NCBI GenBank assembly: GCA_030835125.1
Contig: JAUQWM010000063.1
Coordinates: forward strand, 1 to 64,000
Origin: Gemmatimonadaceae bacterium
Lineage (GTDB): Bacteria > Gemmatimonadota > Gemmatimonadetes > Gemmatimonadales > Gemmatimonadaceae
Length of the DNA: 64,000 nucleotides
Direction: 5' to 3'
A program made the translations under genes and the position numbers. How positions within the stretch are numbered: position 1 is the first letter of the stretch; every line of letters begins with the position of its first letter. Below the pieces are notes generated by a model, which was not told the origin of the DNA, did not search any database, and saw nothing but the letters and a program-made list of their open reading frames with translations. Shown here in pieces: positions 1,579 through 24,859 of the stretch.

Positions 1579-1636
1579 GAGTTGGGAGTTGAGAGTTGAG
1601 AGAATGCCACCGCTCTCAACTCTCAACTCTCAACTC
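1572..1636. repeat. Large inverted repeat of (GAGTTGA)n/(TCAACTC)n between convergent genes; probable bidirectional terminator
   Basis: Arms 1579-1602 and 1613-1636 complementary over 24 bp with one mismatch, 10-nt loop. Confidence 0.75.
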
Positions 1637-5790: not shown

Positions 5791-5863
5791 CTCGTGACAC
5801 GTGACTCGTGACGCGTGACTCGTGACTCGTGACTCGTGACTCGTGACTCGTGACTCGTGACTC
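5781..5863. repeat. 7-bp tandem repeat (TGACTCG)n at the uvrA 3' end
   Basis: About 11 near-perfect TGACTCG units; uvrA stop TGA lies in the first units. Confidence 0.9.
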
Positions 5864-5888
5864 GGGGGAATCTGAATCGGGACGCATG

Positions 5889-5917
5889 CTCCGACCTCCG
5901 ACCTCCGACCTCGGTTC
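5889..5917. repeat. GACCTCC/GACCTCG short repeat at the SDR gene 3' end
   Basis: ctccgacctccgacctcggttctcat. Confidence 0.6.
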
Positions 5918-6736: not shown

Positions 6737-6846
6737 GGAGCGAAAGAGGAGAGGGAATGGTCCATAAGCAGTAGCGAAGGCCAGGGTTGGGCAACAACGA
6801 GTCCGGTGTCGTATGAGCCAGCTCGGAGGCCTTTCCCGCATGGGGA

Positions 6847-9800: not shown

Positions 9801-10506
9801 GAGCACACATCGAATCACCGCCGTGCCGGTCGCCGTCGGCGTCAGCGTGGGCAGCGTGAGCGTGGGCGGCACGCAGACGTGCGCGGCGCCGACAGGGGCA
9901 TTCGGCCAGACCTTCTGCTGGGGCAACAACGGCAAGGACAACCTCCAGGAATACCTGGTGGATTACTCGCCACAGGTCTGGGGATCGAACCTTCTCGGGA
10001 CCGGGTCCAGTGAGAAGACGCTCTACGACCCGCGCCCGGTCGTGAACCTCGGGATGCCGTGGCACCGTGTGAGCGTCGGCACCGGCTTCGTGTGCGCGCT
10101 CGACCTGGCGGGCGCCGCCTCCTGCTGGGGACTGAATGGATTCGGTCAGCTCGGGAACAACTCGACGCAGTGGCGATCGAGCCCTGCACTGGTGCACGGC
10201 GGTCGATTCTTCACGGCCATCGGCACGGGAGGCGGACACTCCTGTGGACTGACGGCGGCGGGCGAAGTCTGGTGCTGGGGTCGGAACACGACGGGCCAAC
10301 TGGGAACCGGCACGGCGGTCAACAGCAGTATTCCCGTGAGATCGGCCATCGGGATCGGGCGCGTGCTGCAGATCTCGGCGGCCGGCGCGAGCACCTGCGC
10401 CCTCACGGAACTGGGCGACGTGTGGTGCTGGGGGTTCAACGCTGATGGTGGCCTGGGCGACGGGACGCTCGTGACCCGGCAGAACCCGGTGAAGGTCGTG
10501 CCGTGA
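6847..10506 (+). CDS. Large lipoprotein with Ig-like, PKD and RCC1-like repeats
   Basis: Lipobox-like LMFLAAC; two PKD-like units (KFGDASAPVTEAGGDTTGSHIYHQKGTFTVEA; WTFGDSTPPDTML); repeated HTCAL...WCWGKNTTGQLGNG. Confidence 0.85.
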   Translation: MAPSASDDVPSPRALPAVLMFLAACGGGDGVAPNEEPDGRPATLAIQGGNNQSADPGTELAMPPTVVVKDASGKGVAGVTVSFSVQSGGGSVASSTSTTGTDGAANPGSWTLGPQSGPNSLEARAGTLTSITFHAQGVATPRLLADTVVGTNGATLQLGDGTAWEGLELTIPDGSFGGPSHWTFRVDPSVTPPTLPAGVLVTSPALVLTTDQARAAHLMTLRVPVKRTPGYVNAVILHDPLRNLIEAFPMFGGDANSILVGSTHLNGSLLVGPGSGAVPRLAAAGLTGSTMFTVSIPTGLLSTMGNVVERVSEVFQIAEGGSYLFPDGHGPGTSLLNMLANVANPNGSLGTLFKPAAVPGMHLDSASLAGLVAIARRYQAEGGLLTPVYNGIGTLISPFSPPVRDSLTDVTLRVALLLNRLPQMVMFVRRIASAPYATTDVSFSTAIGAGPSGVEYVDPTVPQVAKYLRSLGGLGFSSRAFQVVQDALPADAEAVVALGTSFLFPVERYLDTVGKVMAFQRQALAAEAQLPEVIMELRNAANMDWVSIVSGVVRSDSAEIRVRCTQCTDAVPIGTDPELQEAIAVDPGSGAVRSRSRIPGSIGFLVGPFLANLTNGALTQVVGGIFSRVLSFLGPAPTPRAGGLPAAMAATGPVVSRMLTPLNVQLRRMDMQLDPGSQVIQRHTRADFIVRNALPGANGQLEWKFGDASAPVTEAGGDTTGSHIYHQKGTFTVEATLLQSAKRIAQVTGTVVVRDSFTVDPVADTAQVDSLVRFTARPHGDVPASARYVWTFGDSTPPDTMLNDSLATHTYKAPGTYTVTVELWDAIANVRHGVATATVTVVQPSFIQVAVGSAHTCAIAPGGDAWCWGKNTTGQLGNGTTTRSTRPVKVLGGRKFMQVGAGTEHTCGLTTGGAAWCWGDRTSAQLGDGSPFGPLAPPALQPVAVQGTPALVAISVGGRTTCGRTAGGQLWCWGYNGFTQIGDGTSTHRITAVPVAVGVSVGSVSVGGTQTCAAPTGAFGQTFCWGNNGKDNLQEYLVDYSPQVWGSNLLGTGSSEKTLYDPRPVVNLGMPWHRVSVGTGFVCALDLAGAASCWGLNGFGQLGNNSTQWRSSPALVHGGRFFTAIGTGGGHSCGLTAAGEVWCWGRNTTGQLGTGTAVNSSIPVRSAIGIGRVLQISAAGASTCALTELGDVWCWGFNADGGLGDGTLVTRQNPVKVVP

Positions 10507-10603: not shown

Positions 10604-10676
10604 TCCCGAGTAGCTCAGTTGGTAGAGCAGGTGACTGTTAATCACCGGGTCGCAGGTTCGAGTCCTGCCTCGGGAG
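10604..10676 (+). tRNA. tRNA-Asn (GTT)
   Basis: 73 nt; acceptor TCCCGAG/CTCGGGA, anticodon loop CTGTTAA, GTTCGAGTC T-arm. Confidence 0.95.
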
Positions 10677-10677
10677 C
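10633..10677 (+). repeat. attL: 3' part of tRNA-Asn
   Basis: gactgttaatcaccgggtcgcaggttcgagtcctgcctcgggagc, identical to 24815-24859. Confidence 0.95.
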
Positions 10678-10687
10678 CTTGTAGGAC

Positions 10688-10726
10688 AACGACTTAGCCC
10701 GCCGTGCTTCGGTGGGCTTAGTCGTT
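10688..10726 (+). terminator. Hairpin inside element just after tRNA-Asn
   Basis: acgacttagcccgccg-tgctt-cggtgggcttagtcgt stem-loop. Confidence 0.6.
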
Positions 10727-10727
10727 C

Positions 10728-10747
10728 AGGAAGCCAGCAGGAAGCCA
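10728..10747 (+). promoter_or_regulatory. Two direct AGGAAGCCA repeats (putative integrase arm sites, left)
   Basis: AGGAAGCCA at 10728-10736 and 10739-10747, 11-bp period; same word three times at right end. Confidence 0.7.
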
Positions 10748-10761
10748 TCGGGGAATCGACA

Positions 10762-11580
10762 ATGACCTCGCAATTGAATCCGGCGCGGCGACTTGAAAGG
10801 ATCATGGCAGCAGTCGCACCGAATACAAAGCAGAAGACGCTTGTCTTCGACGTCTGGTCCACGGTCTTTGAGGTGAGAGCGGAGCGCGGCTCACCGGAGG
10901 CCTACGCGGAAGTCACGCGTCGCTTGCTCGATCTGCTCCGCGACCTCGACTTGGTGGAAGAATGGCTTCGTGGCACGGACTTGTCGCCCGTTCGCTACGC
11001 CTCGAAACTCGAAGAGGTACGAAGAGCGCTGTCTCCCGCGCGTCTGCACGAAGGATGGAACACGATCTCCGGTGCGTTTCGTGACGAGATCCGAAGCTCG
11101 CTCATTGGTCAGTACGGTGACAGCATGGGAGATCTCGAGCAGGACGTCCAAGGCGACCTTGATACACTAATGGAGCAAGTCGCCGCGCTCGAAGAATCCT
11201 TGAGCGAGTCGACGGAGATCTCGCCTGAGGTGCGTCGGTTCGTGGTGGCCCAGCTGGATGCGATTCGAAAGGCCATCCGCGACTATCCGTCGCAGGGGGC
11301 GATGGCCCTCGAGGCCGCATTTCGTCGTTTCTGCTGGGAGTGGGCGTCCGCGCCGGCATCGAAGACCGACAGGGATCGTGAAACACTTGCGAAGGTGAAG
11401 AAGCTGTGGGCGCGCTCTCGGGCGATCGTCGCAACAGCGACGCGATTGCTCATAACCGCCGCAGCGGCATTCGAGGCAGGCGAAGAGCTATTGGATCGCA
11501 TGCCAGGCATCACAGGCGCCATCGATCGGATCATTACATCCCGGCCGGCACCTCCTCAGCTCCCACCATCCTCTCAATAG
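10762..11580 (+). CDS. Hypothetical element cargo protein (272 aa, helical)
   Basis: Long ORF with credible composition; no family recognised. Confidence 0.6.
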   Translation: MTSQLNPARRLERIMAAVAPNTKQKTLVFDVWSTVFEVRAERGSPEAYAEVTRRLLDLLRDLDLVEEWLRGTDLSPVRYASKLEEVRRALSPARLHEGWNTISGAFRDEIRSSLIGQYGDSMGDLEQDVQGDLDTLMEQVAALEESLSESTEISPEVRRFVVAQLDAIRKAIRDYPSQGAMALEAAFRRFCWEWASAPASKTDRDRETLAKVKKLWARSRAIVATATRLLITAAAAFEAGEELLDRMPGITGAIDRIITSRPAPPQLPPSSQ

Positions 11581-11622
11581 CCCAAGCGGCACGGGGGGGC
11601 CGTTCACCTCATACCGTTGGCC

Positions 11623-12465
11623 TTACGAGAGTGACCGGAATGGTATCTCCGACCGATCAACGACAATACCGTCGCCCTCGAGGACTCGTTGGAGCGCATC
11701 GAATGTCATCCCGTCGTGCCTGCCTGGCCCCACACGAATCGCTGAGATCGACCTGACAAGCGGTAGGGGGGCATTGTCGCCGGCCCCTGCCTCCACGAAG
11801 CGGAGTTCTACGTATGGGACCACGCGGCTATCCGTCGACCGGAGCTTCATTGCCCTTGGCCAGAACCGATCAGTAATGAGGCGCCACTCGCGTTCTTCTC
11901 GGAACGATGGATGCTTGATCGTCGCAGCTACTGCGTAAAATCGGGACTGCAACGATGTGGTCATGAGCTGATTCGTCTCGAGCTCGTAGATGAGTTGGTC
12001 GGCAATGGAGTCGAAGGCGGCACTCGCCTCCTCCTGGGTGTACACGCACTTCGCCAAGGTCGCGCGCTCAACGTGTCCAAGCGCGGTACGGTGGAACCCG
12101 ATTGCGAGGGGCGCGAGACCGCCATACGCCCGCCATTGCCCAAGCGAATCGCCGTCGGCCGATAGGCTGAACACGGCAACTTGCCCTTCAATGTCGAGAT
12201 CACCGCTTCGATGACGCGGACGTCCCGCCACCGAGAGCCAGCCGAGGGCCTGCTGAATCCAGCTGTCGTGGAGCTCGGCCGTAGCACGGATCGCGATGCG
12301 AGCACGGATCACGCTGTCAAAGACGCCGCGCGCGTGTTCGATCTCCGCGGCGTCGTTGAGGTGTCCGAACGCGGTCGCAAACACGACGCCACTCTCCAAG
12401 ATTCTCAGAAGGGCACCTGCCGTCGTGTAATGCCATAGGATGTCGGGGGCGCTCGGTTCTGGCAC
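11623..12465 (-). CDS. DUF2971-like protein
   Basis: ILWHYTTAGALLRILESGVVFAT...HLNDAAEIEH...VAVFSLSADGDSLGQWRAYGG...EWRLI; GTG start overlaps XRE stop (TAGTG). Confidence 0.7.
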   Translation of the reverse strand: MPEPSAPDILWHYTTAGALLRILESGVVFATAFGHLNDAAEIEHARGVFDSVIRARIAIRATAELHDSWIQQALGWLSVAGRPRHRSGDLDIEGQVAVFSLSADGDSLGQWRAYGGLAPLAIGFHRTALGHVERATLAKCVYTQEEASAAFDSIADQLIYELETNQLMTTSLQSRFYAVAATIKHPSFREEREWRLITDRFWPRAMKLRSTDSRVVPYVELRFVEAGAGDNAPLPLVRSISAIRVGPGRHDGMTFDALQRVLEGDGIVVDRSEIPFRSLS

Positions 12466-12692
12466 TAATACTTCCCCCGCTTCCTGACGCTCCTGAGCAA
12501 CTCGGACGCGTCGACGTTGAGTGCTCGAGCGAGTCGGTCGAGGACGTCCAGGTCAATGCGCGATGTCGCGCCCCGTTCGATCGCGCTCACGGTGCCTTGG
12601 CGCACGCACGCCAGCTCGGCGAGCGCTTCCTGACTGAGCCCCTTGGCCGCCCGGAGGTCCCGGAGTCGAATCTGGATAGGCGTCATGGCCAC
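12465..12692 (-). CDS. XRE-family HTH regulator (75 aa)
   Basis: IQIRLRDLRAAKGLSQEALAELACVRQGTVSAIERGATSRIDLDVLDRLARALNV. Confidence 0.92.
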   Translation of the reverse strand: MAMTPIQIRLRDLRAAKGLSQEALAELACVRQGTVSAIERGATSRIDLDVLDRLARALNVDASELLRSVRKRGKY

Positions 12693-12712
12693 CAGTATAC
12701 GCCAGACCGCCT

Positions 12713-12743
12713 ATTGACGCCAAGACGCTAGGGCGTCTAGGTT
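12713..12743. promoter_or_regulatory. Putative operator/promoter in divergent region
   Basis: TTGACG, then palindrome AGACGC-TAGG-GCGTCT (12723-12738), TAGGTT; between XRE and divergent 151-aa ORF. Confidence 0.45.
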
Positions 12744-12773
12744 GGAGCCACACACTCCAGCCGGAGGCACTCC

Positions 12774-13229
12774 ATGGCAGCGAAGCACAGCAAGGTTCCG
12801 CGACGCGAACAGGCCGAACCTCACCCGGGAGGATGGGTCGAGTTGGTGGCCACCACTGACATCGGCGGCAACTGCGAACTCGAGATCCGCCGTACGCTGA
12901 ACGCGGACCTCGGGTGGTTCGACCCTGACCCACGGGTGAACATCAACTTCAAACGGCACAAGTCCGGCCTCCACCCGGCCGATGCAGAACCCGAGTGGGC
13001 CAAGGAGTGGATCGAGGACATTCGCGCCAGTGACTTGGACAGCTTGGTGAAGGCTATCCAGCAGGCCATCGCGGTGGCACGGTTCCACGGCATCATCCCT
13101 GGACCGCTGTCGGACGACGCACGACGTGAGATGCTGGGCGCTGCCCTGCAGGCGGGCACAACGCCTGCTCAGCCCGACGACTCGGACGACGACAGCGACG
13201 GCGGCGAGGAGTGGAAGGCAGGCGTCTGA
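12774..13229 (+). CDS. Hypothetical element protein (151 aa)
   Basis: GGAGG RBS 7 nt upstream; hairpin terminator downstream. Confidence 0.7.
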   Translation: MAAKHSKVPRREQAEPHPGGWVELVATTDIGGNCELEIRRTLNADLGWFDPDPRVNINFKRHKSGLHPADAEPEWAKEWIEDIRASDLDSLVKAIQQAIAVARFHGIIPGPLSDDARREMLGAALQAGTTPAQPDDSDDDSDGGEEWKAGV

Positions 13230-13244
13230 GGTCGTTCGCCCGCA

Positions 13245-13286
13245 CGAAGGGGGGCCGACGCTTTCACGTGAGGCGTCGGCCCTTCG
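13245..13286 (+). terminator. Hairpin terminator
   Basis: GGGCCGACGC...GCGTCGGCCC, 10-bp stem plus flanking CGAAGG/CCTTCG. Confidence 0.65.
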
Positions 13287-13509
13287 CGTCCCCCCCTCAC
13301 GCCTCTGCCCTCACCTTGGCCCGCAGGCGAGCCACGTACCAACGCACCGCCGGCACGAAGGGGTGGAAGTCGACCCGGCTGAATCGCACCGTGGGCAGGC
13401 CTTCCCGTCGCAGGACCCGCACCTCCCGGACGTTGATCCCGACCAGAAAGGCGAACTCGTGGCCGTTCACGTGCTCGGGGAACCGGCCGCCGAATTGCGG
13501 GTTCGAGGC

Positions 13510-13968
13510 TCACCGGCTGAGTTCCGCCATGACTGACCGGACCTCGGCATCGATCGCGGCAGTCGCGTCGGCCATCGTCTTTACGCCCACCACGCAGGGC
13601 GCCAATCGCCCCGGCATCGAGAGTAGTTGCGCCCGGAGCTTGCCGTAGTCGGTCGAAACGATCCGCTCGACGTCGGAGATCGTGAGCAGGTCGCCCCGCG
13701 CCTTCGCCAGCTCCAACTCTGCCAGTTCGGCCTGAGCCGACAGTCGCCGCCTACGCGCCTCGTCCAGGCCCGAAGGCTTCCCTACCTTCTTGAGTCGCTC
13801 GTCGCGCCAGCGGGGGAACTCGGGCCAGCGGAGGAACACCTTCCCGCCCCGCACGACCTTCGGCGCGCCCGGCTCACCATGCAGGCGCGAGACCTCCCCC
13901 CCGGTCAGCCCCAGCCGCCGCGCGGCCTCATTGACGCCAACCTCCTCGGAATCGCCGCCTTTTCGCAT
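13510..13968 (-). CDS. Phage DNA-packaging/terminase small subunit-like (Nu1-type HTH)
   Basis: VNEAARRLGLTGGEVSRLHGEPGAPKVVRGGKVFLRWPEFPRWRDERLKK; C-terminal helices DLLTISDVERIVSTDYGKLRAQLLSMPGRLAP. Confidence 0.65.
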   Translation of the reverse strand: MRKGGDSEEVGVNEAARRLGLTGGEVSRLHGEPGAPKVVRGGKVFLRWPEFPRWRDERLKKVGKPSGLDEARRRRLSAQAELAELELAKARGDLLTISDVERIVSTDYGKLRAQLLSMPGRLAPCVVGVKTMADATAAIDAEVRSVMAELSR

Positions 13969-14090
13969 GGCTAGTTCAGTCAGGTTTGTGATATTGGGTG
14001 TCTAGTTCTCACACGGCCCTGTGCGGACCCTGCGTCTCTACCCCCCGGAAGGACCCGTGAAATCCTTGTAGCTCTTCCGGTGGGGCGGAC

Positions 14091-14109
14091 AGCCAGCCTA
14101 ACGCTGGCT
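14091..14109. terminator. Small hairpin AGCCAGC-CTAAC-GCTGGCT
   Basis: Perfect 7-bp stem; loop lies in the CCTAACG word. Confidence 0.45.
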
Positions 14110-14111
14110 CT

Positions 14112-14318
14112 CTACTTGTTCGGGTTCTGGATGGCGACGGCATCGCCGTAGGCAACGGCGCGCCGTGCTTCTTGCGGGTCGAGTTCCATCTCGCAGCCGG
14201 GCGAGACTTCCCAGCGTCCACCGTCGACGTCCACCGCGCGCGTCGCTTTGGTGAACCGCACCCACTGGGAAGGCCGCGGAGTTCCAGCGGCGAGCAGGCG
14301 CTTGAGCGGGTCAGCCAT
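14112..14318 (-). CDS. Hypothetical phage protein (68 aa)
   Basis: MADPLKRLLAAGTPRPSQWVRFTKATRAVDVDGGRWEVSPGCEMELDPQEARRAVAYGDAVAIQNPNK; overlaps upstream ORF by 8 nt. Confidence 0.6.
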   Translation of the reverse strand: MADPLKRLLAAGTPRPSQWVRFTKATRAVDVDGGRWEVSPGCEMELDPQEARRAVAYGDAVAIQNPNK

Positions 14319-15021
14319 TGGTGCCGACTCCCGCGAGCTCGGCCCGCGCCTTTGCAAGCTTCGCCGCGGCATCGTTCGCGAGCTCGGCCTCGAGCCGGGC
14401 GACTTCGCGCCGCAGTGTCTCCAGGCGTTCGCGCTCGGCATCATCGGCGAGGACCTTGGCCGGCAGGCCGGGGATGATGCGGAAGGCGCCACGCTCGACC
14501 CACGCGGCGATCTGCCCGGCCTTGTCGTGGACGCGCCACGCGCGCGCCGTGGAGGGCACTGGCGCGCACACCAGCGCCTCATTCCACCGGTCGGCGAAGT
14601 GCTCTGTCAGTGGCACCCGCCGCGGTTCGCCGCCGAGCCAGTCGGGCTCAGTGGTCTGCATGGCGCGGCGGATGCCGGCCGCGAGGGCGCGGGCATCGGT
14701 GCCCGTAACGATCTGAGCGTCGGGCAGGTAGTGACCGCCGGCCGCGGGCAGGTCAGGTGCGAAGGCGTCGCTCCTACGCACTTTCGGCTTTGCGTCGGTG
14801 CCGAGCGGTTCCCACCCGCCGTCAGCGATCGCCAACGGCCCGAGCAGCACCCATGTCGCCTCGTGCATGACGAGGGCCTCCTCTTCGCGGCACAGGTGGA
14901 TGATGGGGGCGCGGCGTCGCTCGTCGGGATTCTGCAGGTCGAAGGTCGAGTCAATGCGGGTGGGGTTCATGGTCTGGGGGAGGTGGGTGAAGGCGAAGGC
15001 AAGGCGTCGGCGGAAGCTCAT
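14311..15021 (-). CDS. Hypothetical phage structural/accessory protein (236 aa)
   Basis: Start MSFRRRLAFAFTHLPQTMNPTRIDSTF overlaps upstream stop (ATGA); C-terminal coiled coil. Confidence 0.6.
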   Translation of the reverse strand: MSFRRRLAFAFTHLPQTMNPTRIDSTFDLQNPDERRRAPIIHLCREEEALVMHEATWVLLGPLAIADGGWEPLGTDAKPKVRRSDAFAPDLPAAGGHYLPDAQIVTGTDARALAAGIRRAMQTTEPDWLGGEPRRVPLTEHFADRWNEALVCAPVPSTARAWRVHDKAGQIAAWVERGAFRIIPGLPAKVLADDAERERLETLRREVARLEAELANDAAAKLAKARAELAGVGTNG

Positions 15022-15626
15022 GCGACCGCCTCGAGGGGAACATCGCGGAGTGCCAGCACGTCGGCGGGCGTCAGGCGTCCGTGCGCGAGCAGCGCCTCGG
15101 CGACCCGGGAGATCCACGGCCAGGAGTCCCGGGCGAAGTCGTCCGCCAGATCGACGCACAGGGCGAGGAAGCGCTCACGGGCGCGGTCGGAGAATCCCAG
15201 CGACTGTGCCAGGCGCACCGCGTGCGCGTTGTCGAGGTCACTGGCTGGGAAGGCGTTGCCGTGCCGCCGTTCAGCGGCCGGACCCACAAATAGCATGATG
15301 ACATACGCCTCGACGGCGAAGCGGTCGACGGGCTCGGGTCCGCTCAGGACGACGCGGCCTAACGTCGGCTGCGTGCTTGCGTCCTCGGTCCCGATCGAGG
15401 CGAGCTGGAACGGGATGCCCGCGTCGGTGCAGGCAGCCGCGTGGCCGGCTTCATGGTACGCGACTTGGCGGCGATTCTCGGCCTTCTGCTCGGCACGGCG
15501 CCAGATCAAACGCGCGGAGCAGGCCCGGATCTCCTCCTCGAGGTCGTCCACGGAGAGAAACGACTTCGCTGCGACGTCGAGCGCCGCGAGGGCAGCGCGC
15601 GTTACGCGTTCTTGGGGCTCCATCAT
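15018..15626 (-). CDS. Standalone M41/FtsH-type zinc metallopeptidase domain
   Basis: RRQVAYHEAGHAAACTDAG (HEXXH) ... GPAAERRHGNAFPASDLDNAHAVRLAQSLG resembling FtsH GRAAEE...GA.ND...AT..A. Confidence 0.7.
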   Translation of the reverse strand: MMEPQERVTRAALAALDVAAKSFLSVDDLEEEIRACSARLIWRRAEQKAENRRQVAYHEAGHAAACTDAGIPFQLASIGTEDASTQPTLGRVVLSGPEPVDRFAVEAYVIMLFVGPAAERRHGNAFPASDLDNAHAVRLAQSLGFSDRARERFLALCVDLADDFARDSWPWISRVAEALLAHGRLTPADVLALRDVPLEAVA

Positions 15627-18328
15627 AGCGGCACTCCCTGCGCCGCCGACTGGTCAGCAATCCGCCGAAACAACTTCTGGGAGATCTTCTCGGTCAGCTC
15701 CTCACCGACCTCCTCCACCGACCTGCCGTCGGGCGCGACGGTGACCGGGCCGAAGTGCCATCCACCGTTGACGACGATTCCCGCCACTCCTCCGCTCCCA
15801 AGGCTCCCGCCTGAGCCCGGGAACCAGGTCCCGGTCTCACTGTCCATCGAGTCGAGGCCACCGGTCACCAGCTTGTCATCTTTGCCGAGGCCCAGCGTCC
15901 CGAAGTCGGCGGGGAGCATGGCGCCCGTACCGCCAACAGCGTCGGCCAGCGGAATCAGCAGCTTGAGCAGGTCGAGGAACTGACCGCCGTTCAGGTCCCC
16001 GAAGTCCTCGGCCGACAGCCCGCCCGTCTGCAACTTGCCGAACAGTCCGCGCAAGGCGCCGCCGGCGTCGCCGCTCTGCAACGCGGCCGCGATCGCGGGG
16101 GAGAACGACCCGAGTTGCGAGAGCTGGGCAAGCTGCTGGCCCTTGTCCTCGACACCGAAGACACCGAACCCCTCGGTAATCGATCGCAGTTGCGACTCGA
16201 AGTCCTGTCCGAATTGCCCGAACTCCACGTCGCCGAGACCCTTGCCGATCTGGCCGAGCGAGGCGCCAAAGGTCGCGGCACTCGTGAACGCGCCACCGAA
16301 CCCCAGGTCGCCGAGGATCTGCTTCGCCTCGGACAGCGACACGCCATTCTTGAGCAGTTCCCGGATGAAGAAGTCGAACGTCTTGATGTCCGTTTCGACC
16401 CGATCGCGGCCCTTGAGCTGGCCCGACGACTGCGCCTGCTCGGTCGCCGCAATCGCGGACTGGATGCCCTTGAACTGCTTGCCCGTGGCCGACAGATCGA
16501 GGTTCCCGACTTCGCGGGAGAGGCGGTCCAGCGCGTCCTTGTTCTGCGACAGCGCGGCCTTCATGGCCCGGTGGGCTTCGCTATTGCCGATGCCGGTGAT
16601 GACGTTGGCGAGGCCGCCCAGCACGCCCACGATGCCGCCCAGCGGGTCGACGCCGATCCGGGCGAGCGAGGAGCCGATGTTCAGGACCGAGTTCATGACG
16701 CTGGCCATCTCGCTGTTGACCGCGCCCGACGCTTGCGCCACGTCCAGCAGCGCACGCCCGAGCCCGACCGCGCCCTCGACCGTCTGCTGGAACTCGCCCT
16801 TCACGTCCTTCGCGGTCTCGCGGTTCTTCTCCAGCGCCTTGTTGTTCTCGTCGATCGACGCCTTGAGTTCTTCGGCCGGCGGCAGCAGGTCCGAGAGATC
16901 GCCCTTGACCAACCGGACGTTGCGGTCGATCTCCGCCCATTGCTCCTTGTGCTGGGCGAGATCGATCTTGCGGAGCGCCTCCTCGACCTTCTGGAACAGC
17001 GCCGCGGATTCCCGCGCCGCCTTCTCTCGCGCGATCGTGGTCTCGAGATGGCTGGCTTCAATCTCCTTGTTCGACTCCTTGACCAGTCGCGTCCGGGCGG
17101 AAGTTTCCTTCTTGACCGTCTCGGTCTGCGCTTCTTCGGTCTGGCGGACGCCGGTGCGAAGTTGCGTCCAGGCCTTCTCGTGCTGGGCGCGAGATTCCTC
17201 GAGCAACTTGCCGCCTTCGGCGACCGCGATCTCGCCAGCATCCTTCAGCGTTTTTCCCCACGCCACGCCGACGTCGATGCCGAACAGCTTGAGAACGCGA
17301 CCACCCGCCATGACGAACTCGCCGAGCTTCGCCTGCACGAGACCCACGGCGGACAGAGCAGCGCCAGAGAACGCCCGGAACCCGGCCGCGACTTCGCCAA
17401 TGAGGCCGAGGAGCCGGGCGAACAGCGAGCCGTTGCCGCCACCGATCGCGGCGAGGGCAGGCTGCATCGTCTGGACGATCGCCTTGCCGGTGTCGAAGAT
17501 CGCGGACCCCACCTCGCCGATCGCGGCGAAGAAGTCCCGGAACTTCTCCGCGTTGCGGCCGATCCAGCCGGCCAGCGATTCGAGCAGGGTGCCCGCACCG
17601 CCGAGGAAGTTGTTGAGCCCCTCGCCGCCCGTGACCACGCCACCGATCGCCTCCTTCACTTCGCCGAGCTGCTTGAAGACGTTCTCAAGCCGGCCCTGAA
17701 ATCCGGCCGCCTGGTCCTCGGCGGTCCCCTTCAACTTCTCGCCTAACGCCCCGACCGCGTCCGCGCTGCCCTTCAATTCGGGGAACAGCTTGGTCAACGC
17801 GGTCGTGTTGCCGGCCATTGCCTTGGCGACGATGTCCGAGGCCGCGCCGAGGTCCAGATTGCGCGCCGCGGCGAGGTCTGCGACGACCGCCATATTCTTC
17901 AGGCTGCCCTCGGCGTCCCCCGTGATCTGGATCATCCCCGTCAGGGCGTCCCGCAGGTCGTCGTCCGTGAACTTGGTCTGGCGGGCGAGCCCGGAAATCA
18001 CCTTGTCAATCGGCGCCTCGAGGTCCTTGTAGGACAGGCCGAGGTTGCCTAACGCATGTTGTAGCGCGTTGGTCGATCGTTCCGCCGCGCCCGCCTCGTT
18101 GATAGAGTCCTTGAAGAACCCGTAGACGGCCGCGCCCGCGTCCTTCACGAGGGAAAGCGCCATCGTGGCCACGCCGCCGGCAATGCCGCCAATCGCTGCC
18201 GCTGCACCGCCGCTAATCGTCTTCGCGCGGCCGGCGAACCCGGTCAGGTCCCGTTCCGCTTCCGCCGCACCACCCTTGACGTCTGATTGCGCGGTAATTC
18301 GGATTCTGACGTCGCCGTCGTTAGCCAT
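15623..18328 (-). CDS. Phage tail tape measure protein
   Basis: 901 aa; N-terminal AERDLTGFAGRAKTISGGAAAAIGGIAGGVATMALSLVKDAG, Gly/Ala hydrophobic stretches, coiled coil. Confidence 0.88.
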   Translation of the reverse strand: MANDGDVRIRITAQSDVKGGAAEAERDLTGFAGRAKTISGGAAAAIGGIAGGVATMALSLVKDAGAAVYGFFKDSINEAGAAERSTNALQHALGNLGLSYKDLEAPIDKVISGLARQTKFTDDDLRDALTGMIQITGDAEGSLKNMAVVADLAAARNLDLGAASDIVAKAMAGNTTALTKLFPELKGSADAVGALGEKLKGTAEDQAAGFQGRLENVFKQLGEVKEAIGGVVTGGEGLNNFLGGAGTLLESLAGWIGRNAEKFRDFFAAIGEVGSAIFDTGKAIVQTMQPALAAIGGGNGSLFARLLGLIGEVAAGFRAFSGAALSAVGLVQAKLGEFVMAGGRVLKLFGIDVGVAWGKTLKDAGEIAVAEGGKLLEESRAQHEKAWTQLRTGVRQTEEAQTETVKKETSARTRLVKESNKEIEASHLETTIAREKAARESAALFQKVEEALRKIDLAQHKEQWAEIDRNVRLVKGDLSDLLPPAEELKASIDENNKALEKNRETAKDVKGEFQQTVEGAVGLGRALLDVAQASGAVNSEMASVMNSVLNIGSSLARIGVDPLGGIVGVLGGLANVITGIGNSEAHRAMKAALSQNKDALDRLSREVGNLDLSATGKQFKGIQSAIAATEQAQSSGQLKGRDRVETDIKTFDFFIRELLKNGVSLSEAKQILGDLGFGGAFTSAATFGASLGQIGKGLGDVEFGQFGQDFESQLRSITEGFGVFGVEDKGQQLAQLSQLGSFSPAIAAALQSGDAGGALRGLFGKLQTGGLSAEDFGDLNGGQFLDLLKLLIPLADAVGGTGAMLPADFGTLGLGKDDKLVTGGLDSMDSETGTWFPGSGGSLGSGGVAGIVVNGGWHFGPVTVAPDGRSVEEVGEELTEKISQKLFRRIADQSAAQGVPL

Positions 18329-18671
18329 TCGTTAGGTTCTCCAGCGTCGTGCTGCTTGTGGGAGTGAACTGTCCGACCTGCACCAGCAGCGCTGCCACGG
18401 CCTCGCCGCGCTTCTCGGGTGTGCAGCGCATCAGGTGGCCAACGGGGTCGCCGCCGGGGCGGAAGTACGCCCAGCGCCACGGGAAGGCGGCACGGAGGAA
18501 ACGCCGCAGGCGGTACGTGCGGACGAGCCGCGAAGGATGCGCCCTACCGCGGATGAAGGCGTTCAGGGCACTGACCCCAACCGGGCGGGCGTGGTGCTCC
18601 TGCCCGCGAATGGTGACGGTGACGTTCGGTGTGTCGCGGCGCTCGCGGATCGCGTCCAGGTCGATAATCAC
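18321..18671 (-). CDS. Tail assembly-associated small protein (116 aa)
   Basis: Position directly upstream of tape measure with overlapping start. Confidence 0.5.
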   Translation of the reverse strand: MIIDLDAIRERRDTPNVTVTIRGQEHHARPVGVSALNAFIRGRAHPSRLVRTYRLRRFLRAAFPWRWAYFRPGGDPVGHLMRCTPEKRGEAVAALLVQVGQFTPTSSTTLENLTNG

Positions 18672-19273
18672 TTTGCGGTCCTCATGGCGTCCGCGAACCG
18701 CTTCGGGAAGGATTCCCGCGCGGCGGTGAGTGCCTGCTCGCTGGCATGATCGAGGGCAGGGCGAAGCACCGGCTTGATGCGGACGGTCCTGACGAGCAGG
18801 TAGAACGTGCGGACGGTCTTCGCTTTCCCGCGCCCCACTGCCTTGGCGAGCTGGGAGAGCCCATCCCTCGGCCCCTTGAAGAACGCCCCGGCGGCGACGA
18901 GTGCGCGCGGGCGCTGGCTGGTGGGGATTAAGTCCTTCTTGGTGCGTCGCACGGCCGACAGCGGAATGGCCAACTTGCCCTGCCCATCGGCCGGCCCGTG
19001 CTGGCCGCCGGTCAGGTGCTTGCTGAGGAACTTCGCGGCATCGGTCGTCCCGACTTCCGCGACGAGGTTGGCCTTTGTGCTCCGCGTCAGGCGCGCGCCG
19101 TGCATCCGGAAGAACTCCGGGCGTCGCAGGGTGAAGCGATCCGCGTACTCGCCGAGCAGCGCCTTCTGGCCCGCGATCGCGCCGTCGTTCAGGGATTGCG
19201 ACGCGGCGAAGTTTGACTGCTTCGCGATGTTCGCGAGCTTGGATTGTGCGCCAGTCATATCGACGGTCGTCAT
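18668..19273 (-). CDS. HK97 gp10-like tail component (201 aa)
   Basis: Start MTTVDMTGAQSKLANIAKQSNFAASQ; LVRTVRIKPVLRPALDHASEQALTAARESFPKRFADAM. Confidence 0.5.
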   Translation of the reverse strand: MTTVDMTGAQSKLANIAKQSNFAASQSLNDGAIAGQKALLGEYADRFTLRRPEFFRMHGARLTRSTKANLVAEVGTTDAAKFLSKHLTGGQHGPADGQGKLAIPLSAVRRTKKDLIPTSQRPRALVAAGAFFKGPRDGLSQLAKAVGRGKAKTVRTFYLLVRTVRIKPVLRPALDHASEQALTAARESFPKRFADAMRTAK

Positions 19274-19593
19274 CGAACGATCTCCTGTACGAGGGGGGAG
19301 GTACGTTCGCGGAGTGCCTGCTGGAGACGCTCGAGGAGCTGCTGAGCGATGTCGTCCTGCTCGCTCTCCGGGAGTCGGTCCCACCGGGTTGCCGGCGAGC
19401 CTAACCAGAGCCAGCTCATGCGCGCCTCGCCCGCATGGGCAGCGATGTAGCCTTTGACCAGGACCCGCCGCTGTCGCGGGGTGGCACTCGTCAGGCTCGA
19501 CACGATTCCGGGGAGCGCACTGGTGGGGATCCTGACGTCGGTGTCGCGCGCGCCAGGTCCGAGGCGGATGGAGAGAACGAGAACGATGCTCAC
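19270..19593 (-). CDS. Hypothetical phage protein (107 aa)
   Basis: ATGA overlap with downstream gene. Confidence 0.5.
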   Translation of the reverse strand: MSIVLVLSIRLGPGARDTDVRIPTSALPGIVSSLTSATPRQRRVLVKGYIAAHAGEARMSWLWLGSPATRWDRLPESEQDDIAQQLLERLQQALRERTSPLVQEIVR

Positions 19594-19820
19594 GGGAACC
19601 TCCGCGATGCGGGCGAGTGTCGGCGTTGTTGTGCGGGCGCGCGGGAGCCGGCGAGCTCGTCGCCGAGCACGAGGACCGCTGGCGGGAGTTTGTTGGCCCG
19701 GGCGAGTCTGTTGGCATCGTCCTGGCTCTCCGCGTCGAACTCGATCGGGATGCCAGCCTCGCCGAGGTAGGGCACAAGCCGGCCGGTCACGGGGTCGGGA
19801 ACCATGGCGGCGAACCTCAT
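19590..19820 (-). CDS. Hypothetical phage protein (76 aa)
   Basis: MRFAAMVPDPVTGRLVPYLGEAGIPIEFDAESQDDANRLARANK; ATGA overlaps both sides. Confidence 0.5.
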   Translation of the reverse strand: MRFAAMVPDPVTGRLVPYLGEAGIPIEFDAESQDDANRLARANKLPPAVLVLGDELAGSRAPAQQRRHSPASRRFP

Positions 19821-20734
19821 GGCCGCGGTCCTTCGCCTAACGGTGACGTCGCGTAGCGGTCGCGCTCGGGAACTTCCTGAACGCGGAGGGTCCGATAGTC
19901 CCAGGCGACGGGGATCTTCGGTTGCGGGCCGTGACGGTTCTTGGCGACTAGCAGGTTGGTCGTCGCACCCGTCGGCGTGCGGTTGAAGTTGGAAAAGTCG
20001 AGTAGCAGCACCTGGTCGGCGTCTTCGTCCAGTGAGCCGCCTTTCAACGCCTCGATGCCTGGTTCCTCGGTCTTTTGCGTGAGCGCGCCCCGGTTCATCT
20101 GCGACAGGGCGAGCACGGTGAGACCGGTCTCGAAGGCCAGCTCCTGCAGCCGGCCGGACACGGCCTGCGTGCGCTCGAACATGCCCGGGTATTCGGCGCG
20201 ACCGATGAGCTGCACGTAGTCGACCACGGCGAGGGAGCACCCTTCGTCGGCGGCCTGACGGAGCGCGACGGTCAAACCGGCCATACTGCGAGGCGGACGG
20301 TCGCAGAGGGTGAGCCGGCCGAGAAGGCCCGCATCACGTATCGCGTACATTGCGCTCTCGAACGTGCCCGCGTCGAATTGCGCCCCGCGTTCGATTCGCC
20401 GGAGGTCGCAGCCCGTGGCGATCCCGATAAAGCGCGTGACGAGCTGCGCGCGGCTCATCTCGAGGCTGTAGAACATCACGGACCGCTTGTCGCGCATGGC
20501 GGCGAGCGTGACGTTGAGTGCGAGCGCCGACTTTCCCGCGCCCGGCTTGCCGGCGACGACGACCTGCCAACCCTTCGCGAGCCCGAGACCGCCGCCCTCG
20601 CCGCGACAAGCGGCGTTCCACGTCGGAAGCGACGTCGGGACCGTGTCGGTGACGGGCTTCGCGTGCTCGCGACGCATGACCTCGAGGTCGATCCAGTTCA
20701 CGAGCTCGAGTGCCACCATCGGGGCGTCAGCCAT
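19817..20734 (-). CDS. DnaB-like replicative helicase
   Basis: VVAGKPGAGKSALALN Walker A; FYSLEMSRAQLVTRFIG; LAVVDYVQLIGR; LSQMNRGALTQ. Confidence 0.9.
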   Translation of the reverse strand: MADAPMVALELVNWIDLEVMRREHAKPVTDTVPTSLPTWNAACRGEGGGLGLAKGWQVVVAGKPGAGKSALALNVTLAAMRDKRSVMFYSLEMSRAQLVTRFIGIATGCDLRRIERGAQFDAGTFESAMYAIRDAGLLGRLTLCDRPPRSMAGLTVALRQAADEGCSLAVVDYVQLIGRAEYPGMFERTQAVSGRLQELAFETGLTVLALSQMNRGALTQKTEEPGIEALKGGSLDEDADQVLLLDFSNFNRTPTGATTNLLVAKNRHGPQPKIPVAWDYRTLRVQEVPERDRYATSPLGEGPRP

Positions 20735-21671
20735 AGGCCTCAGCCACCTCCGCCGGCGAGCAGTAGCTCGTGCCCGTCGAGCGGTTCGAGGTGCCCACGC
20801 TGCCCCAGTCCTCCGCGAATCGCCGGTCAGGGCCGAAGAACGTCGCGGCCTGCATCACGAACTCAGTGTCAGTCTTCCCGCTCTGGTCGCAGTACGTGGC
20901 GTACCGCCGCACCCCTTCAAGCATCTCCGTGGCGGTCGTGCCTTCGCGGAGGCGAGCGCGCCAGCTCTTGCGCGCGCGGTCCTTCGGGTTTCCACCCTGC
21001 CGCTTCGGGTAGGCCACCCACGCCTGGTCAAAGAGCGGCTCGGGCTCGTCCGGCTTCCGCTGCTTCGGGGAGGGGCGCGCCCCCAGCGCGCCCCCATGCC
21101 CTTCGGATGCCATCAACACTCTGTCTTCTGTCTTCTGTAATCGCGATGGCATGGGGGATGCCATGCCCGAGGTATCCTCATGGCTATCCGATGGCATGGG
21201 GTATGCCATGAGGATGGCATCGGCATCGGGGAAGAACGCGGCGTACTCGCGAATGAACGCACCGACCAGGGCCAGGCGCGGAAGGCCGGCGACGTGTTGC
21301 TGAACCGACGCGCGGTGATTCGGGTTGCTGGCCTTCAGGCTGGGCTCGTATTCGAGCTGGCCGACGATCCAGAGGACGTTCCCTTCGCGCCGGATCCATC
21401 CACCCGCTTCCAACTCATTGAGTGCGGCGCCGATGTCCTTCACGGAAAGCCCGGTCTGTGCAGCGAGCTCCTCGAGCAGGGCGCGCGGATAGCGCGGCTC
21501 GATCCCAGCTGGCCCCATGCCGATTTTCAGGGTCAGGAGCACGAGGCGTGACTCAGCGGTGAGCCGCTGATAGTCAGGCCCGTCGATCAGGACTCGAGCG
21601 ATCCCGCGATATGCTCCTCGTGATGCGGCCACCGTCAGCGACCCCCGAGAAACGCGATCGCAGCATCGCAC
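20727..21671 (-). CDS. Phage replication initiator (lambda O-like architecture)
   Basis: N-terminal winged-helix-like region; C-terminal FDQAWVAYPKRQGGNPKDRARKSWRARL...TFFGPDRRFAEDW; upstream of DnaB; carries iteron-like repeats. Confidence 0.7.
   Translation of the reverse strand: MRCCDRVSRGSLTVAASRGAYRGIARVLIDGPDYQRLTAESRLVLLTLKIGMGPAGIEPRYPRALLEELAAQTGLSVKDIGAALNELEAGGWIRREGNVLWIVGQLEYEPSLKASNPNHRASVQQHVAGLPRLALVGAFIREYAAFFPDADAILMAYPMPSDSHEDTSGMASPMPSRLQKTEDRVLMASEGHGGALGARPSPKQRKPDEPEPLFDQAWVAYPKRQGGNPKDRARKSWRARLREGTTATEMLEGVRRYATYCDQSGKTDTEFVMQAATFFGPDRRFAEDWGSVGTSNRSTGTSYCSPAEVAEAYG
21105..21220. promoter_or_regulatory. Putative replication origin: iteron-like palindromes
   Basis: ATGGCAT/ATGCCAT heptamer six times, including ATGGCATGGGGGATGCCAT (21146-21164) and ATGGCATGGGGTATGCCAT (21191-21209). 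Confidence 0.65.
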
Positions 21672-21967
21672 CGCTCATCGACCTGTTCCCGCGCCGGCCG
21701 CCAGGTCTTCGCCGCCTTTGCCCGGATGGCGCTCTCCCGGAGAGCGTCGCCCTCGGCAAGGAACAGGTCGACGTCGGGCACGAGCTCGAGGCGCGCGGCA
21801 CCATGTACAGAGGCCACAAGGAATCTCCCGCCGACCGCCGTCATGGAGGCGCTGAGGATCACCCGGTCGCCGATCGATCCTTCGACGTCGACAGTCCAGG
21901 CGCGAACAGGCGCCATAGTCGTGCCGACTGGCGCGCGGTCGTGGTCTTCGCGATCTTTTCTGTACAT
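21635..21967 (-). CDS. Hypothetical protein
   Basis: Start taken at MYRKDREDHDRAPVG; same direction as replication genes. Confidence 0.45.
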   Translation of the reverse strand: MYRKDREDHDRAPVGTTMAPVRAWTVDVEGSIGDRVILSASMTAVGGRFLVASVHGAARLELVPDVDLFLAEGDALRESAIRAKAAKTWRPAREQVDERCDAAIAFLGGR

Positions 21968-22272
21968 CTCTGTTGCCCTCCCGCGGGCGATTGGATGGAG
22001 GCCGGCGCCCAAACGCTGGCCTCGTTGTCTTTCAGCAGTGTGGGTGTTTCCCGATGCCGCTTACCAGTCCTTGCAAGCCTCTGCGGACAAACAGCACTCT
22101 TCAAACACGCTGCCTTCCAGCACGGGCAGGATTCGCCGCGACGCGTTTTACCGGCTGTCCGGCCGGGCTGACCTGAGTGTCGGCCGCGCCGGGCGATCCT
22201 GTATGAAGACAGCCCGCGCCAGCCGAAGGGGCCAAGGAGCCGAGGCGTCGCGGAGCTGGTGAAGCTTCATCG

Positions 22273-22476
22273 TTAGGCTTCGCCCGAGTCTGACGTCGAG
22301 CGCCGAGTGTTGGCGTCGAGGAACGCCTCGATGGCGGACGGTCTGTACAGCACACGCGCGCCGACTTTCACGAACTCGGGGGAACGGCCGGCGACGCGCC
22401 ACGCCGCCAGCGTTTGCGGCTTCACGCCCAACGCCTCTGCGGCAGACCGGCTGTCGAGCAGGGTCTCTATTGACAC
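22273..22476 (-). CDS. HTH_17/AlpA-type excisionase-like DNA-binding protein
   Basis: LDSRSAAEALGVKPQTLAAWRVAGRSPEFVKVGARVLYRPSAIEAFLDANTR. Confidence 0.88.
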   Translation of the reverse strand: MSIETLLDSRSAAEALGVKPQTLAAWRVAGRSPEFVKVGARVLYRPSAIEAFLDANTRRSTSDSGEA

Positions 22477-22520
22477 GTTTGGAACCTCGTGGCTGACGGT
22501 GAACGCGCCTAGATTGGCTT

Positions 22521-23159
22521 ATGGCCAGCGTTCGACCTAATTCAAAGGCAGCGCAGCGGGGGAAGCCTGCGGGCAGCATGCGGGTCGACTACTGCCGCGT
22601 GTTGGACCGTGGTGCGCTCGGCCGGTTCGTCCGGTGGCTGGTGGACCGCGCCGGCGGCATCAGGCCGTTGCATACCAGAACAGGCCTGCCAGTAGCCTCG
22701 GTTCACGACTGGCTAAATTGTCGCCGAAACGAAATGGCGCCGCGGACCCGCCTCGCTCTACGTCAGGCAGTGTGGCGAGCTGGCAGGCACCCATCGACGC
22801 AACCGGGCCCGCAGGGAGACTCCGAGTACGATCGCCTTCAGCGACTCCTCGACCGTGGTGTCGGTGCCGCGCCACCGGCTCACCATCCGGTGGCAAGCTC
22901 CCGCGGCCGCTGGCGGTTCATCGCGTCGGGGGTGGAGTGGGTCGACCTATCGTACGATCTGCCGCAGCGTACCAGTCGGTCGCTCGACGTAGGGCGTATA
23001 CCACCTGGCTTGTGGAAAAAATGGCCGTTTGGAGAGTGGAGGCGAGCAACGCCTCGACAAGCCAGTCTCCTGAAAGCGAGTAACCCCGCAAACTGGATTC
23101 AGGACGCTCGAGCGCTCCCGGATGGACGCATCGTTCTATGCTTCCTTGCGCCTCCCTGA
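22521..23159 (+). CDS. Putative element regulator / hypothetical (212 aa)
   Basis: Divergent from the excisionase-like gene; HTH-like PLHTRTGLPVASVHDWLN. Confidence 0.5.
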   Translation: MASVRPNSKAAQRGKPAGSMRVDYCRVLDRGALGRFVRWLVDRAGGIRPLHTRTGLPVASVHDWLNCRRNEMAPRTRLALRQAVWRAGRHPSTQPGPQGDSEYDRLQRLLDRGVGAAPPAHHPVASSRGRWRFIASGVEWVDLSYDLPQRTSRSLDVGRIPPGLWKKWPFGEWRRATPRQASLLKASNPANWIQDARALPDGRIVLCFLAPP

Positions 23160-23375
23160 CCTCGGGGGCGGCGGTGCGGCGGATGCGGCGGGCTTGGGCG
23201 GCCATGTTGCGATGTACGCCGAGTCGACGTGCTGCGTCACCGAGGGAGACCGGAGGACGTGATGCACTTATTTGTGCATCATCTTTCTGGCTTTGCACCC
23301 GCCCCCGCTTCATCGTCGCCAGCCGCTCCGCATACGCCGCCCGCTGCGAGGCCGTGTAGTGCGTCCGTAGCAGGT

Positions 23376-24662
23376 TCAGCGCATGCGTTTTCGCTTCAGT
23401 GGGGTGACGGGTGTGGATGGCGCCGCAGCCATGGCCCGCGCGATCGCACCGGCCGTTTCGTCAGCCGCCCGCCTCATCGGGTCGTCGGCGAGGTGCGCGT
23501 ACTTCGCCGAAGTGCTGACCTGGCGATGGCCCAGCAGCTTTCCAATCACTAGCAGGGGTTGACCCGCGGCGGCCGCGCCTGACGCGAAGCTATGCCGCAG
23601 ATCATGAAGCCGGACGTCGGGAAGTCCGGCAGCGACGCGCACCGATGACCAGAGCCGCTTCACATTGTCCAGGTGCGCTCCTTTGACTCGGCCCGGAAAG
23701 ACATGTGGGTTGCCCTGCACGTGCGGCAGGTTCGCCAGCAGTTCCTTCGCCGCGCCACCGAGGGGACGCACCGAGGGGCCAGTCTTCGTCATGCCGAGTC
23801 GCAGGAACCCGCGCTCGAGGTCGACCGCATCCCAGCGGAGGGACAGCACTTCCCCGCTCCGCGCGCCCGTCAAGGCCATGAGTCGAAGCGCCGCGATCGC
23901 GAACGGATCGGCAGGCGTTGGAACGTCGGCTGACTTCGGCCGGTTCTTGCCACCCTTCTGCCGTCGCAAGTGCTCGGGGGCCACGAGCCCGACCTTCTCG
24001 GCCTTCGCCAAGGCGTCGCCCAGGGCCGAGAACTCCGCTGGGGTGAGGAATCGTTCCTTGCCCTTCTCCGCGTATCGCTCGAGGCCGCGCGTCGGGTTCA
24101 CGTGCGTCGGAATCGCCCCTTGGCGCCCCGCGTACGAGAAGAACGCACCGAGCAACGCCGCCACACGGTTCGCGGTCACCGGCTTGTCGCTGAGCTTCCG
24201 GTGCAGCTTCGCCACGTCAGCGAGCGTGATGCTGGCGACCTTCCGGGTCCCGAACATCGGCACAACGTATGCCTCCCACTGCTCCCGATACTTTCGCGTC
24301 GTGGCAGGACTCCGGAGCGCCTCGACGTGCGCTAGATAGTCGACGCCAAGCTCGGCGACGGTTGGAGCGTTGCGCGCGGTCACACGCTGGCTGGCGGGAT
24401 CCTCGCCCTTGGCGACGTCGCCCAGGTGCTGCTTCGCGAGTTGCCGCGCCTGCTCGATCGTGATAGCGCCATGCCGGCCAAGCGTCACTCGACGGAATCG
24501 GCGCGAGCCCTGCGCGCGAAACCCGACGACGTAGACCTTGCGTCCGCTCGGCTGCACACGCACACCGAACCCGGGGAGCGTCGCGTCCCACGTGAAGTAG
24601 TCGCCGTCGGTTCGAGGGCGCAGCGCCTCGACGGCGCGTTTCGTCAGCTTGGTAGTCGTCAT
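23376..24662 (-). CDS. Tyrosine-type site-specific integrase
   Basis: 428 aa; ALTGARSGEVLSLRW; LHDLRHSFASGAAAAGQPLLVIGKLLGHRQVSTSAKYAHL. Confidence 0.96.
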   Translation of the reverse strand: MTTTKLTKRAVEALRPRTDGDYFTWDATLPGFGVRVQPSGRKVYVVGFRAQGSRRFRRVTLGRHGAITIEQARQLAKQHLGDVAKGEDPASQRVTARNAPTVAELGVDYLAHVEALRSPATTRKYREQWEAYVVPMFGTRKVASITLADVAKLHRKLSDKPVTANRVAALLGAFFSYAGRQGAIPTHVNPTRGLERYAEKGKERFLTPAEFSALGDALAKAEKVGLVAPEHLRRQKGGKNRPKSADVPTPADPFAIAALRLMALTGARSGEVLSLRWDAVDLERGFLRLGMTKTGPSVRPLGGAAKELLANLPHVQGNPHVFPGRVKGAHLDNVKRLWSSVRVAAGLPDVRLHDLRHSFASGAAAAGQPLLVIGKLLGHRQVSTSAKYAHLADDPMRRAADETAGAIARAMAAAPSTPVTPLKRKRMR

Positions 24663-24688
24663 GTTGCAACCCCGGTGTCTGGAGGCTC

Positions 24689-24718
24689 AGGAAGCCAATA
24701 GGAAGCCACAGGAAGCCA
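24689..24718 (+). promoter_or_regulatory. Three direct AGGAAGCCA repeats (putative integrase arm sites, right)
   Basis: 24689-24697, 24700-24708, 24710-24718; upstream of the integrase start codon. Confidence 0.75.
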
Positions 24719-24814
24719 TTCGCGTCTATCGGCAGGAATTGTCCCTGAGCCGTAACGCCCTGTGTTGTCTACGGTTGGGAATCTACGTCCATTCCGGGGA
24801 ATGCGCCATTCCGG

Positions 24815-24859
24815 GACTGTTAATCACCGGGTCGCAGGTTCGAGTCCTGCCTCGGGAGC
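24815..24859 (+). repeat. attR: 45-bp copy of tRNA-Asn 3' end
   Basis: Identical to 10633-10677. Confidence 0.95.

What the first reader, a model, noticed from the sequence alone, without database searches (positions are those of the whole stretch)
10633..24859. Tail-bearing but capsid-less integrative element in tRNA-Asn (satellite-like)
The 14.2-kb element has integrase, excisionase-like gene, O-like initiator, DnaB helicase, tape measure, gp10-like tail protein and a Nu1/TerS-like packaging protein. I find no major capsid, portal, prohead protease of HK97 type, large terminase or lysis genes. Known capsid-forming PICIs keep capsid genes and borrow tails; this would be the reverse logic. 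A decayed prophage is the main alternative, but the ORFs are intact and closely overlapping (ATGA).
Basis: partly seen in the sequence, partly recalled or inferred. Interest (0 to 1): 0.7.

Follow-up and report, generated by a model that had tools for sequence, protein, structure and literature searches.

The report
Capsid-less island carrying partial tail module
A 14-kb piece of DNA inserted in a bacterial tRNA gene looks like a virus parasite that lacks any virus shell genes but carries a few genes controlling how virus tails are built, the same rare strategy recently proven for satellites of cholera bacteria, here in an unrelated organism and with different genes.

Summary
A 14.2-kb element lies between perfect 45-bp repeats of the tRNA-Asn 3' end. 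It encodes integrase, xis-like HTH, O-like initiator, DnaB-type helicase, a lambda-Nu1-like TerS and a tail cassette. No capsid, portal, protease, TerL, tail-tube or lysis gene is detectable. 'Tail-bearing' is too strong: the cassette is gpZ-like tail-completion protein, tail assembly chaperone (TAC) and tape measure protein (TMP), without tube or tip. The same gpZ-TAC-TMP order occurs in a full phage (L031), and TAC and TMP have homologues in a genuine tail operon (L041). Nine of nine junctions from O to u68 overlap by 4 or 8 nt, so the cassette sits inside a replication operon, which a random deletion would hardly produce. Best reading: a phage satellite that replicates itself, directs a helper's packaging with its own TerS, and swaps its TMP/TAC/gpZ into helper-built tails. 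This has a precedent: Vibrio cholerae PLEs do it with TAC/TMP (Nature 2026, PMC12987554). This case differs in host, tail genes, replication module and a TerS. No relative with this architecture was found, the host has no detectable helper prophage, and transfer is untested. A remodelled prophage remnant remains possible.

The parts
10604..10678 (+). tRNA-Asn (GTT), integration target; restored by the left att copy
   Evidence: ARAGORN; Rfam RF00005
10633..10677 (+). att repeat, left copy (45 bp, in the 3' half of the tRNA)
   Evidence: perfect direct repeat
10762..11580 (+). 272-aa ORF of unknown function, lower GC (60.6%), probable cargo
   Evidence: no family match
11623..12465 (-). DUF2971 protein, probable cargo
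   Evidence: PF11185 1.7e-7; weak PADLOC PDC-S31 0.006
12465..12692 (-). XRE-type regulator, overlaps DUF2971 by 1 nt
   Evidence: PF01381 7.6e-17
12774..13229 (+). 151-aa ORF, unknown
13297..13470 (-). 57-aa protein resembling a stand-alone TerS (Nu1) DNA-binding domain
   Evidence: phrog_57 8e-4; similar to the L031 TerS N-terminus, z about 7
13510..13968 (-). TerS (lambda Nu1-like terminase small subunit)
   Evidence: phrog_57 2e-22; 42% identity over 126 aa to the TerS of a full prophage, L021
14112..14318 (-). u68: 68-aa ORF, last gene of the coupled operon
   Evidence: overlap of 8 nt with the 236-aa ORF
14311..15021 (-). 236-aa ORF of unknown function, C-terminal coiled coil predicted
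   Evidence: no family match, no relative in 399 genomes or phage records; AF2 uninformative, pLDDT 44
15018..15626 (-). small FtsH/M41-like HEAGH metallopeptidase
   Evidence: PF01434 0.005 over the HExxH motif; homologues in small mobile-element-like contigs
15623..18328 (-). tape measure protein (901 aa)
   Evidence: phrog_4704 8e-6; homologues are TMPs in tail operons, phmmer 2e-30 and 7e-25
18321..18671 (-). tail assembly chaperone (TAC), 116 aa
   Evidence: homologous to the gene between tail tube and TMP in L041: z=10 against 2000 shuffles, phmmer 6e-6; 8-nt overlap with TMP
18668..19273 (-). gpZ/gp10-like tail completion protein
   Evidence: phrog_1924 1e-13; homologues in 9 of 399 genomes of the phylum, window genome included
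19270..19593 (-). u107: 107-aa ORF, unknown
   Evidence: phrog_2591 0.001, unknown function
19590..19820 (-). u76: 76-aa ORF, unknown
19817..20734 (-). DnaB-type helicase, C-terminal domain only (305 aa)
   Evidence: PF03796 7.8e-37
20727..21671 (-). O-like replication initiator
   Evidence: phrog_270 6.5e-31
21144..21210 (.). iteron-like palindromic repeats inside the O gene, putative origin
   Evidence: CGATGGCATGGGG(G/T)ATGCCATG twice; core motif is the only exact pair in 64 kb
21635..22012 (-). 125-aa ORF, unknown
22273..22476 (-). HTH_17 / excisionase-like protein
   Evidence: PF12728 1.3e-7; phrog_66 9.5e-8
22521..23159 (+). 212-aa divergently transcribed ORF, possible regulator
   Evidence: weakly similar over 60 aa to a divergent ORF of the capsid-bearing element L018
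23376..24662 (-). tyrosine integrase
   Evidence: phrog_1 3.4e-61; PF00589 7.8e-19
24815..24859 (+). att repeat, right copy

Best explanation
The element is a chromosomally integrated phage satellite. Shown by sequence: it has its own recombination module at tRNA-Asn, its own O/DnaB replication module with iteron-like repeats in O, its own TerS, and one coupled operon in which a gpZ-TAC-TMP cassette is embedded; it lacks capsid, portal, TerL, tail tube, tail tip and lysis genes. Inferred: when a siphovirus-type helper infects or is induced, the element excises and replicates; its TerS brings the helper's large terminase and procapsid to satellite DNA; its TMP with TAC, and gpZ, replace the helper's counterparts, giving chimeric tails of satellite-determined length and injection properties. 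The 57-aa TerS-like DNA-binding domain could bias packaging against the helper (speculative).
For: Perfect att repeats and tRNA target. Complete int/xis/O/DnaB/TerS set. No capsid, portal, TerL, tube or lysis match in 20 ORFs. All nine junctions from O to u68 overlap by 4 or 8 nt, on both sides of the tail cassette, and most genes, TMP included, keep coding-type GC3, which is not the picture of decay. TAC and TMP have homologues in a real tail operon with a Phage_tube_2 gene; gpZ-TAC-TMP order matches a full phage. Precedent: PLE satellites with TAC+TMP and no capsid build chimeric tails, and tmp deletion cuts transduction by 96-99.9%. A tRNA-adjacent int+primase+gpZ+HK97-capsid element without visible TerL or portal (L018) occurs in the same host family.
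Against: One copy in one genome; no relative with this architecture in the phylum sample, IMG/VR, phage records or the genome scans that could be run, although the pattern-based scans reach close relatives only. No helper detected in the host: no GpA-type TerL, no PF05065 capsid, and the single phrog_2 hit is a PhoH-like gene. TAC identity rests on one homologue and position; its AF2 model is poor and matched no known TAC. No selection test was possible.
Confidence: 0.55

Rival explanations
1. Remodelled or decaying prophage: a siphovirus prophage lost its head and most of its tail genes by deletion and rearrangement; the remaining gpZ-TAC-TMP and TerS are leftovers without function in transfer.
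For: gpZ-TAC-TMP is a contiguous, syntenic piece of a normal phage tail module; TerS and gpZ have clear homologues in full prophages of the same phylum; no other copy of the element was found; no helper in the genome.
Against: No broken gene or phage gene fragment was seen in 14 kb; the cassette is fused on both sides by ATGA overlaps to non-structural genes; TerS lies after TMP instead of before TerL, so more than one simple deletion is needed; int, xis, O and DnaB remain intact with coding-type GC3.
Confidence: 0.28
2. The tail genes act as anti-phage weapons rather than virion parts: a foreign TMP/TAC/gpZ poisons tail assembly of invading phages and protects the island's host, as Tai systems and Rta block tail assembly by other means.
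For: Interference with tail assembly is an established satellite and prophage strategy (PMC11364771; PMC12987554); possible defence-like cargo (XRE, DUF2971) lies next door.
Against: Tai and Rta are not TMP/TAC pairs; a full-length 901-aa TMP with its chaperone and a TerS points to assembly and packaging; no PADLOC match to the operon genes tested.
Confidence: 0.1
3. The element is half of a split satellite or phage that needs a partner element supplying the capsid, such as the capsid-bearing L018 type in the same family.
For: L018 (G111) has int, primase, TerS-like HTH, gpZ-like and an HK97 capsid but no visible TerL, portal or tail gene; its divergent ORF is weakly similar to that of this element.
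Against: They occur in different genera and were not seen together; the 212-aa similarity is short and did not reach threshold in a genome search; the L018 contig is incomplete.
Confidence: 0.04

Closest known systems
PLE (PICI-like elements of Vibrio cholerae, e.g. PLE11, PLE1, PLE4)
   Same: Integrated satellite without capsid genes that encodes a TAC-TMP pair; works by chimeric tails in the published case (PMC12987554).
   Different: Different host; TAC has no sequence match to the PLE1 TAC structure 5IR0 in the PDB search; siphovirus-type genes with gpZ; O/DnaB replication; carries a TerS; no BhuB-like hub recognised.
PICI (phage-inducible chromosomal islands, Gram-negative type)
   Same: 10-15 kb, att in a fixed chromosomal site, int at one end, xis and replication genes, often TerS, no capsid (PMC6092414).
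   Different: O/DnaB module rather than pri/rep; carries TMP, TAC and gpZ; no AlpA or Stl/Rpr identified.
cf-PICI (capsid-forming PICI)
   Same: Satellite with morphogenesis genes; some carry putative tmp genes (PMC12987554, Extended Data Fig. 10).
   Different: cf-PICIs encode capsid, portal, protease, connectors and TerL (PMC10690885); all absent here.
Siphovirus tail module (order as in IMG/VR contig L031)
   Same: gpZ-TAC-TMP order and homology.
   Different: Tube, tail tip, head, TerL and portal missing; TerS relocated; cassette embedded in a replication operon.

Membership tests
PLE | tmp and tac genes present, capsid genes absent | tested here: met
PLE | sequence relatedness to PLE proteins | tested here: not met
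   TAC gave no match to PLE1 TAC 5IR0 in the PDB search at E up to 10; other PLE proteins were not compared
PLE | TMP incorporated in chimeric tails | not testable with these tools
   needs virion proteomics
PICI | specific att site with int next to one end | tested here: met
   45-bp repeats, int lies about 150 bp from the right att
[quoted passage not shown]
   xis-like HTH (-) and 212-aa ORF (+) are divergent, but the repressor is not recognised
PICI | pri/rep replication module with ori downstream | tested here: not met
   O + DnaB instead, iterons inside O
PICI | phage-dependent induction and packaging | not testable with these tools
   experiment needed
cf-PICI | capsid, portal, protease and TerL encoded | tested here: not met
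Complete prophage | TerL, portal, capsid and lysis genes | tested here: not met
Decayed prophage | broken genes or phage gene fragments | tested here: not met
   all main ORFs open and overlapping; a remodelled remnant without fragments is not excluded

The most novel reading that the evidence does not exclude
An independent lineage of satellites, outside Vibrio, that owns TerS plus a tail-determining cassette (gpZ, TAC, TMP) inside its replication operon and borrows head and tail tube from a siphovirus helper; tail reprogramming by satellites would then have arisen convergently and with non-homologous genes.
Probability: 0.42. Interest if true: 0.72.

Novelty: new variant of a known kind. Interest (0 to 1): 0.52.

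Why it matters
[quoted passage not shown] PLEs showed that some bring their own tape measure and chaperone (PMC12987554). A second, unrelated case with siphovirus-type genes and its own TerS would suggest that control of tail assembly is a general satellite strategy. It would also give an operon in which the benefit (tail length, DNA injection, escape from tail-targeting defences, selective head-tail joining) can be tested gene by gene.

Tried and rejected
Pattern-based scans of viral and genome collections with TMP, peptidase, gpZ, 236-aa ORF, DnaB and O found no close relative of the element. A full 10-sequence gpZ alignment was too variable for a scan. AF2 of the TAC (pLDDT 61) and the 236-aa ORF (pLDDT 44) gave no usable fold, and the PDB fold search of the TAC found nothing. 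The apparent TerL in the host genome (phrog_2, 3e-6, C60) is a PhoH-like gene in a YbeY context, judged by its sequence and neighbours. The 42-bp second match in the genome (C23) is a low-complexity match inside a host gene. The similarity of the 236-aa ORF to prohead proteases (z about 4.5) is a compositional, gapped match, so it was rejected as evidence of a capsid module. The empty-site search was swamped by tRNA-Asn itself; in the same-genus genome only the tRNA region matched, not the flanks.

Full report
Observation. The window holds an integrated element bounded by a perfect 45-bp repeat, 10633-10677 and 24815-24859. The left copy is the 3' part of an intact tRNA-Asn gene at 10604-10678. 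The integrase gene lies about 150 bp from the right repeat. The element occurs once in its 4.48-Mb, 99% complete genome.

Gene content. Twenty ORFs were scanned against Pfam and PHROGs. Recognised: tyrosine integrase, HTH_17/excisionase-like protein, O-like initiator, DnaB C-terminal helicase domain, gpZ-like minor tail protein (phrog_1924), tape measure protein, an FtsH/M41-like HEAGH peptidase, Nu1-like TerS, XRE regulator and DUF2971 protein. No ORF matched capsid, portal, prohead protease, TerL, tail tube, baseplate or lysis families. The O gene contains two near-identical palindromic repeats (21144-21165, 21189-21210), a possible origin within O as in lambdoid phages (the lambda arrangement is from general knowledge).

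The tail cassette. TMP homologues in genomes of the same phylum lie in tail operons. In L041 the order is tail tube (PF18906, 4e-5), a 133-aa gene, TMP; that 133-aa gene is homologous to the element's 116-aa ORF (score 72 against a shuffle maximum of 59 in 2000, z=10; phmmer 6e-6). The 116-aa ORF is therefore a probable tail assembly chaperone; AF2 and fold search neither confirm nor contradict this. In the IMG/VR phage contig L031 the order is TerS, TerL, portal, protease-like gene, capsid, a 175-aa gene, probable tube, gpZ-like, 107-aa gene, 88-aa gene, TMP (portal, protease and tube in L031 are named by position and sequence, not by a strong profile match), so the element's gpZ-TAC-TMP is a contiguous piece of a normal siphovirus-type tail module. 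In many prophages of this phylum the gpZ-like gene instead lies just upstream of TerS-TerL.

Operon structure. O/DnaB (8 nt), DnaB/u76 (4), u76/u107 (4), u107/gpZ (4), gpZ/TAC (4), TAC/TMP (8), TMP/peptidase (4), peptidase/236-aa (4) and 236-aa/68-aa (8) all overlap (coordinates). The tail cassette is therefore embedded at both ends in a translationally coupled operon with replication and unknown genes, and TerS follows TMP after a 143-nt gap. Most genes, TMP among them, show high GC3 and low GC2 as expected of maintained genes in this genome; the 212-aa ORF is weaker. This argues against a freshly decayed prophage, but not against an old remodelled one.

Relatives and host. No element with this architecture was found. 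The collection scans reach only close relatives; the genome searches sampled 399 genomes of the phylum. The host genome has no GpA-type TerL and no PF05065 capsid; a weak phrog_2 match is a PhoH-like gene by its sequence and neighbourhood. A helper, if any, is therefore not resident or is of another type. In another genus of the same family a 13-kb contig (L018) carries integrase next to a tRNA 3' end, primase and helicase genes, a TerS-like HTH protein, gpZ and an HK97-type capsid (PF05065, 7e-16) without visible TerL or portal; it may be a capsid-bearing satellite. The tools did not name the host phylum and it was not identified here.

Mechanism. The closest proven precedent is PLE of V. [quoted passage not shown] By that analogy the element most likely packages its DNA into helper heads through its own TerS and swaps its own TMP/TAC/gpZ into the tail. 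The gene content is shown; excision, replication, packaging and chimeric tails are inferred.

Verdict. As a case in another organism with different genes it is a new variant of a known kind, moderately interesting, with a remodelled prophage as the main rival.

Noticed in passing
L018 (G111:C469) 266-8325: tRNA-adjacent integrative element with HK97-type capsid, gpZ-like and TerS-like proteins and primase but no visible TerL, portal or tail gene: a possible capsid-bearing satellite in the same bacterial family.
   Followed up: partly
L016, L017, L019, L020, L021, L023, L024: In prophages of this phylum the gpZ-like 'minor tail' gene sits just upstream of TerS-TerL, far from the tail genes, in contrast to L031 where it precedes TAC-TMP.
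   Followed up: partly
13297-13470: 57-aa protein that looks like a stand-alone Nu1/TerS DNA-binding domain directly after the complete TerS; it could bind packaging sites without recruiting TerL.
   Followed up: no
15018-15626: Small FtsH-like HEAGH peptidase without AAA domain; similar genes lie on other small mobile-element-like contigs (L027, L029).
   Followed up: partly
11623-12692: DUF2971 gene overlapping an XRE regulator by 1 nt beside the att site, with a weak PADLOC candidate-defence match (PDC-S31, 0.006).
   Followed up: no
L041 3824-6433 (G258:C299): TMP gene of a phage tail operon is interrupted by an in-frame TAG.
   Followed up: no
6847-10506: 1219-aa protein with Ig-like, PKD and RCC1 repeats directly upstream of tRNA-Asn.
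   Followed up: no
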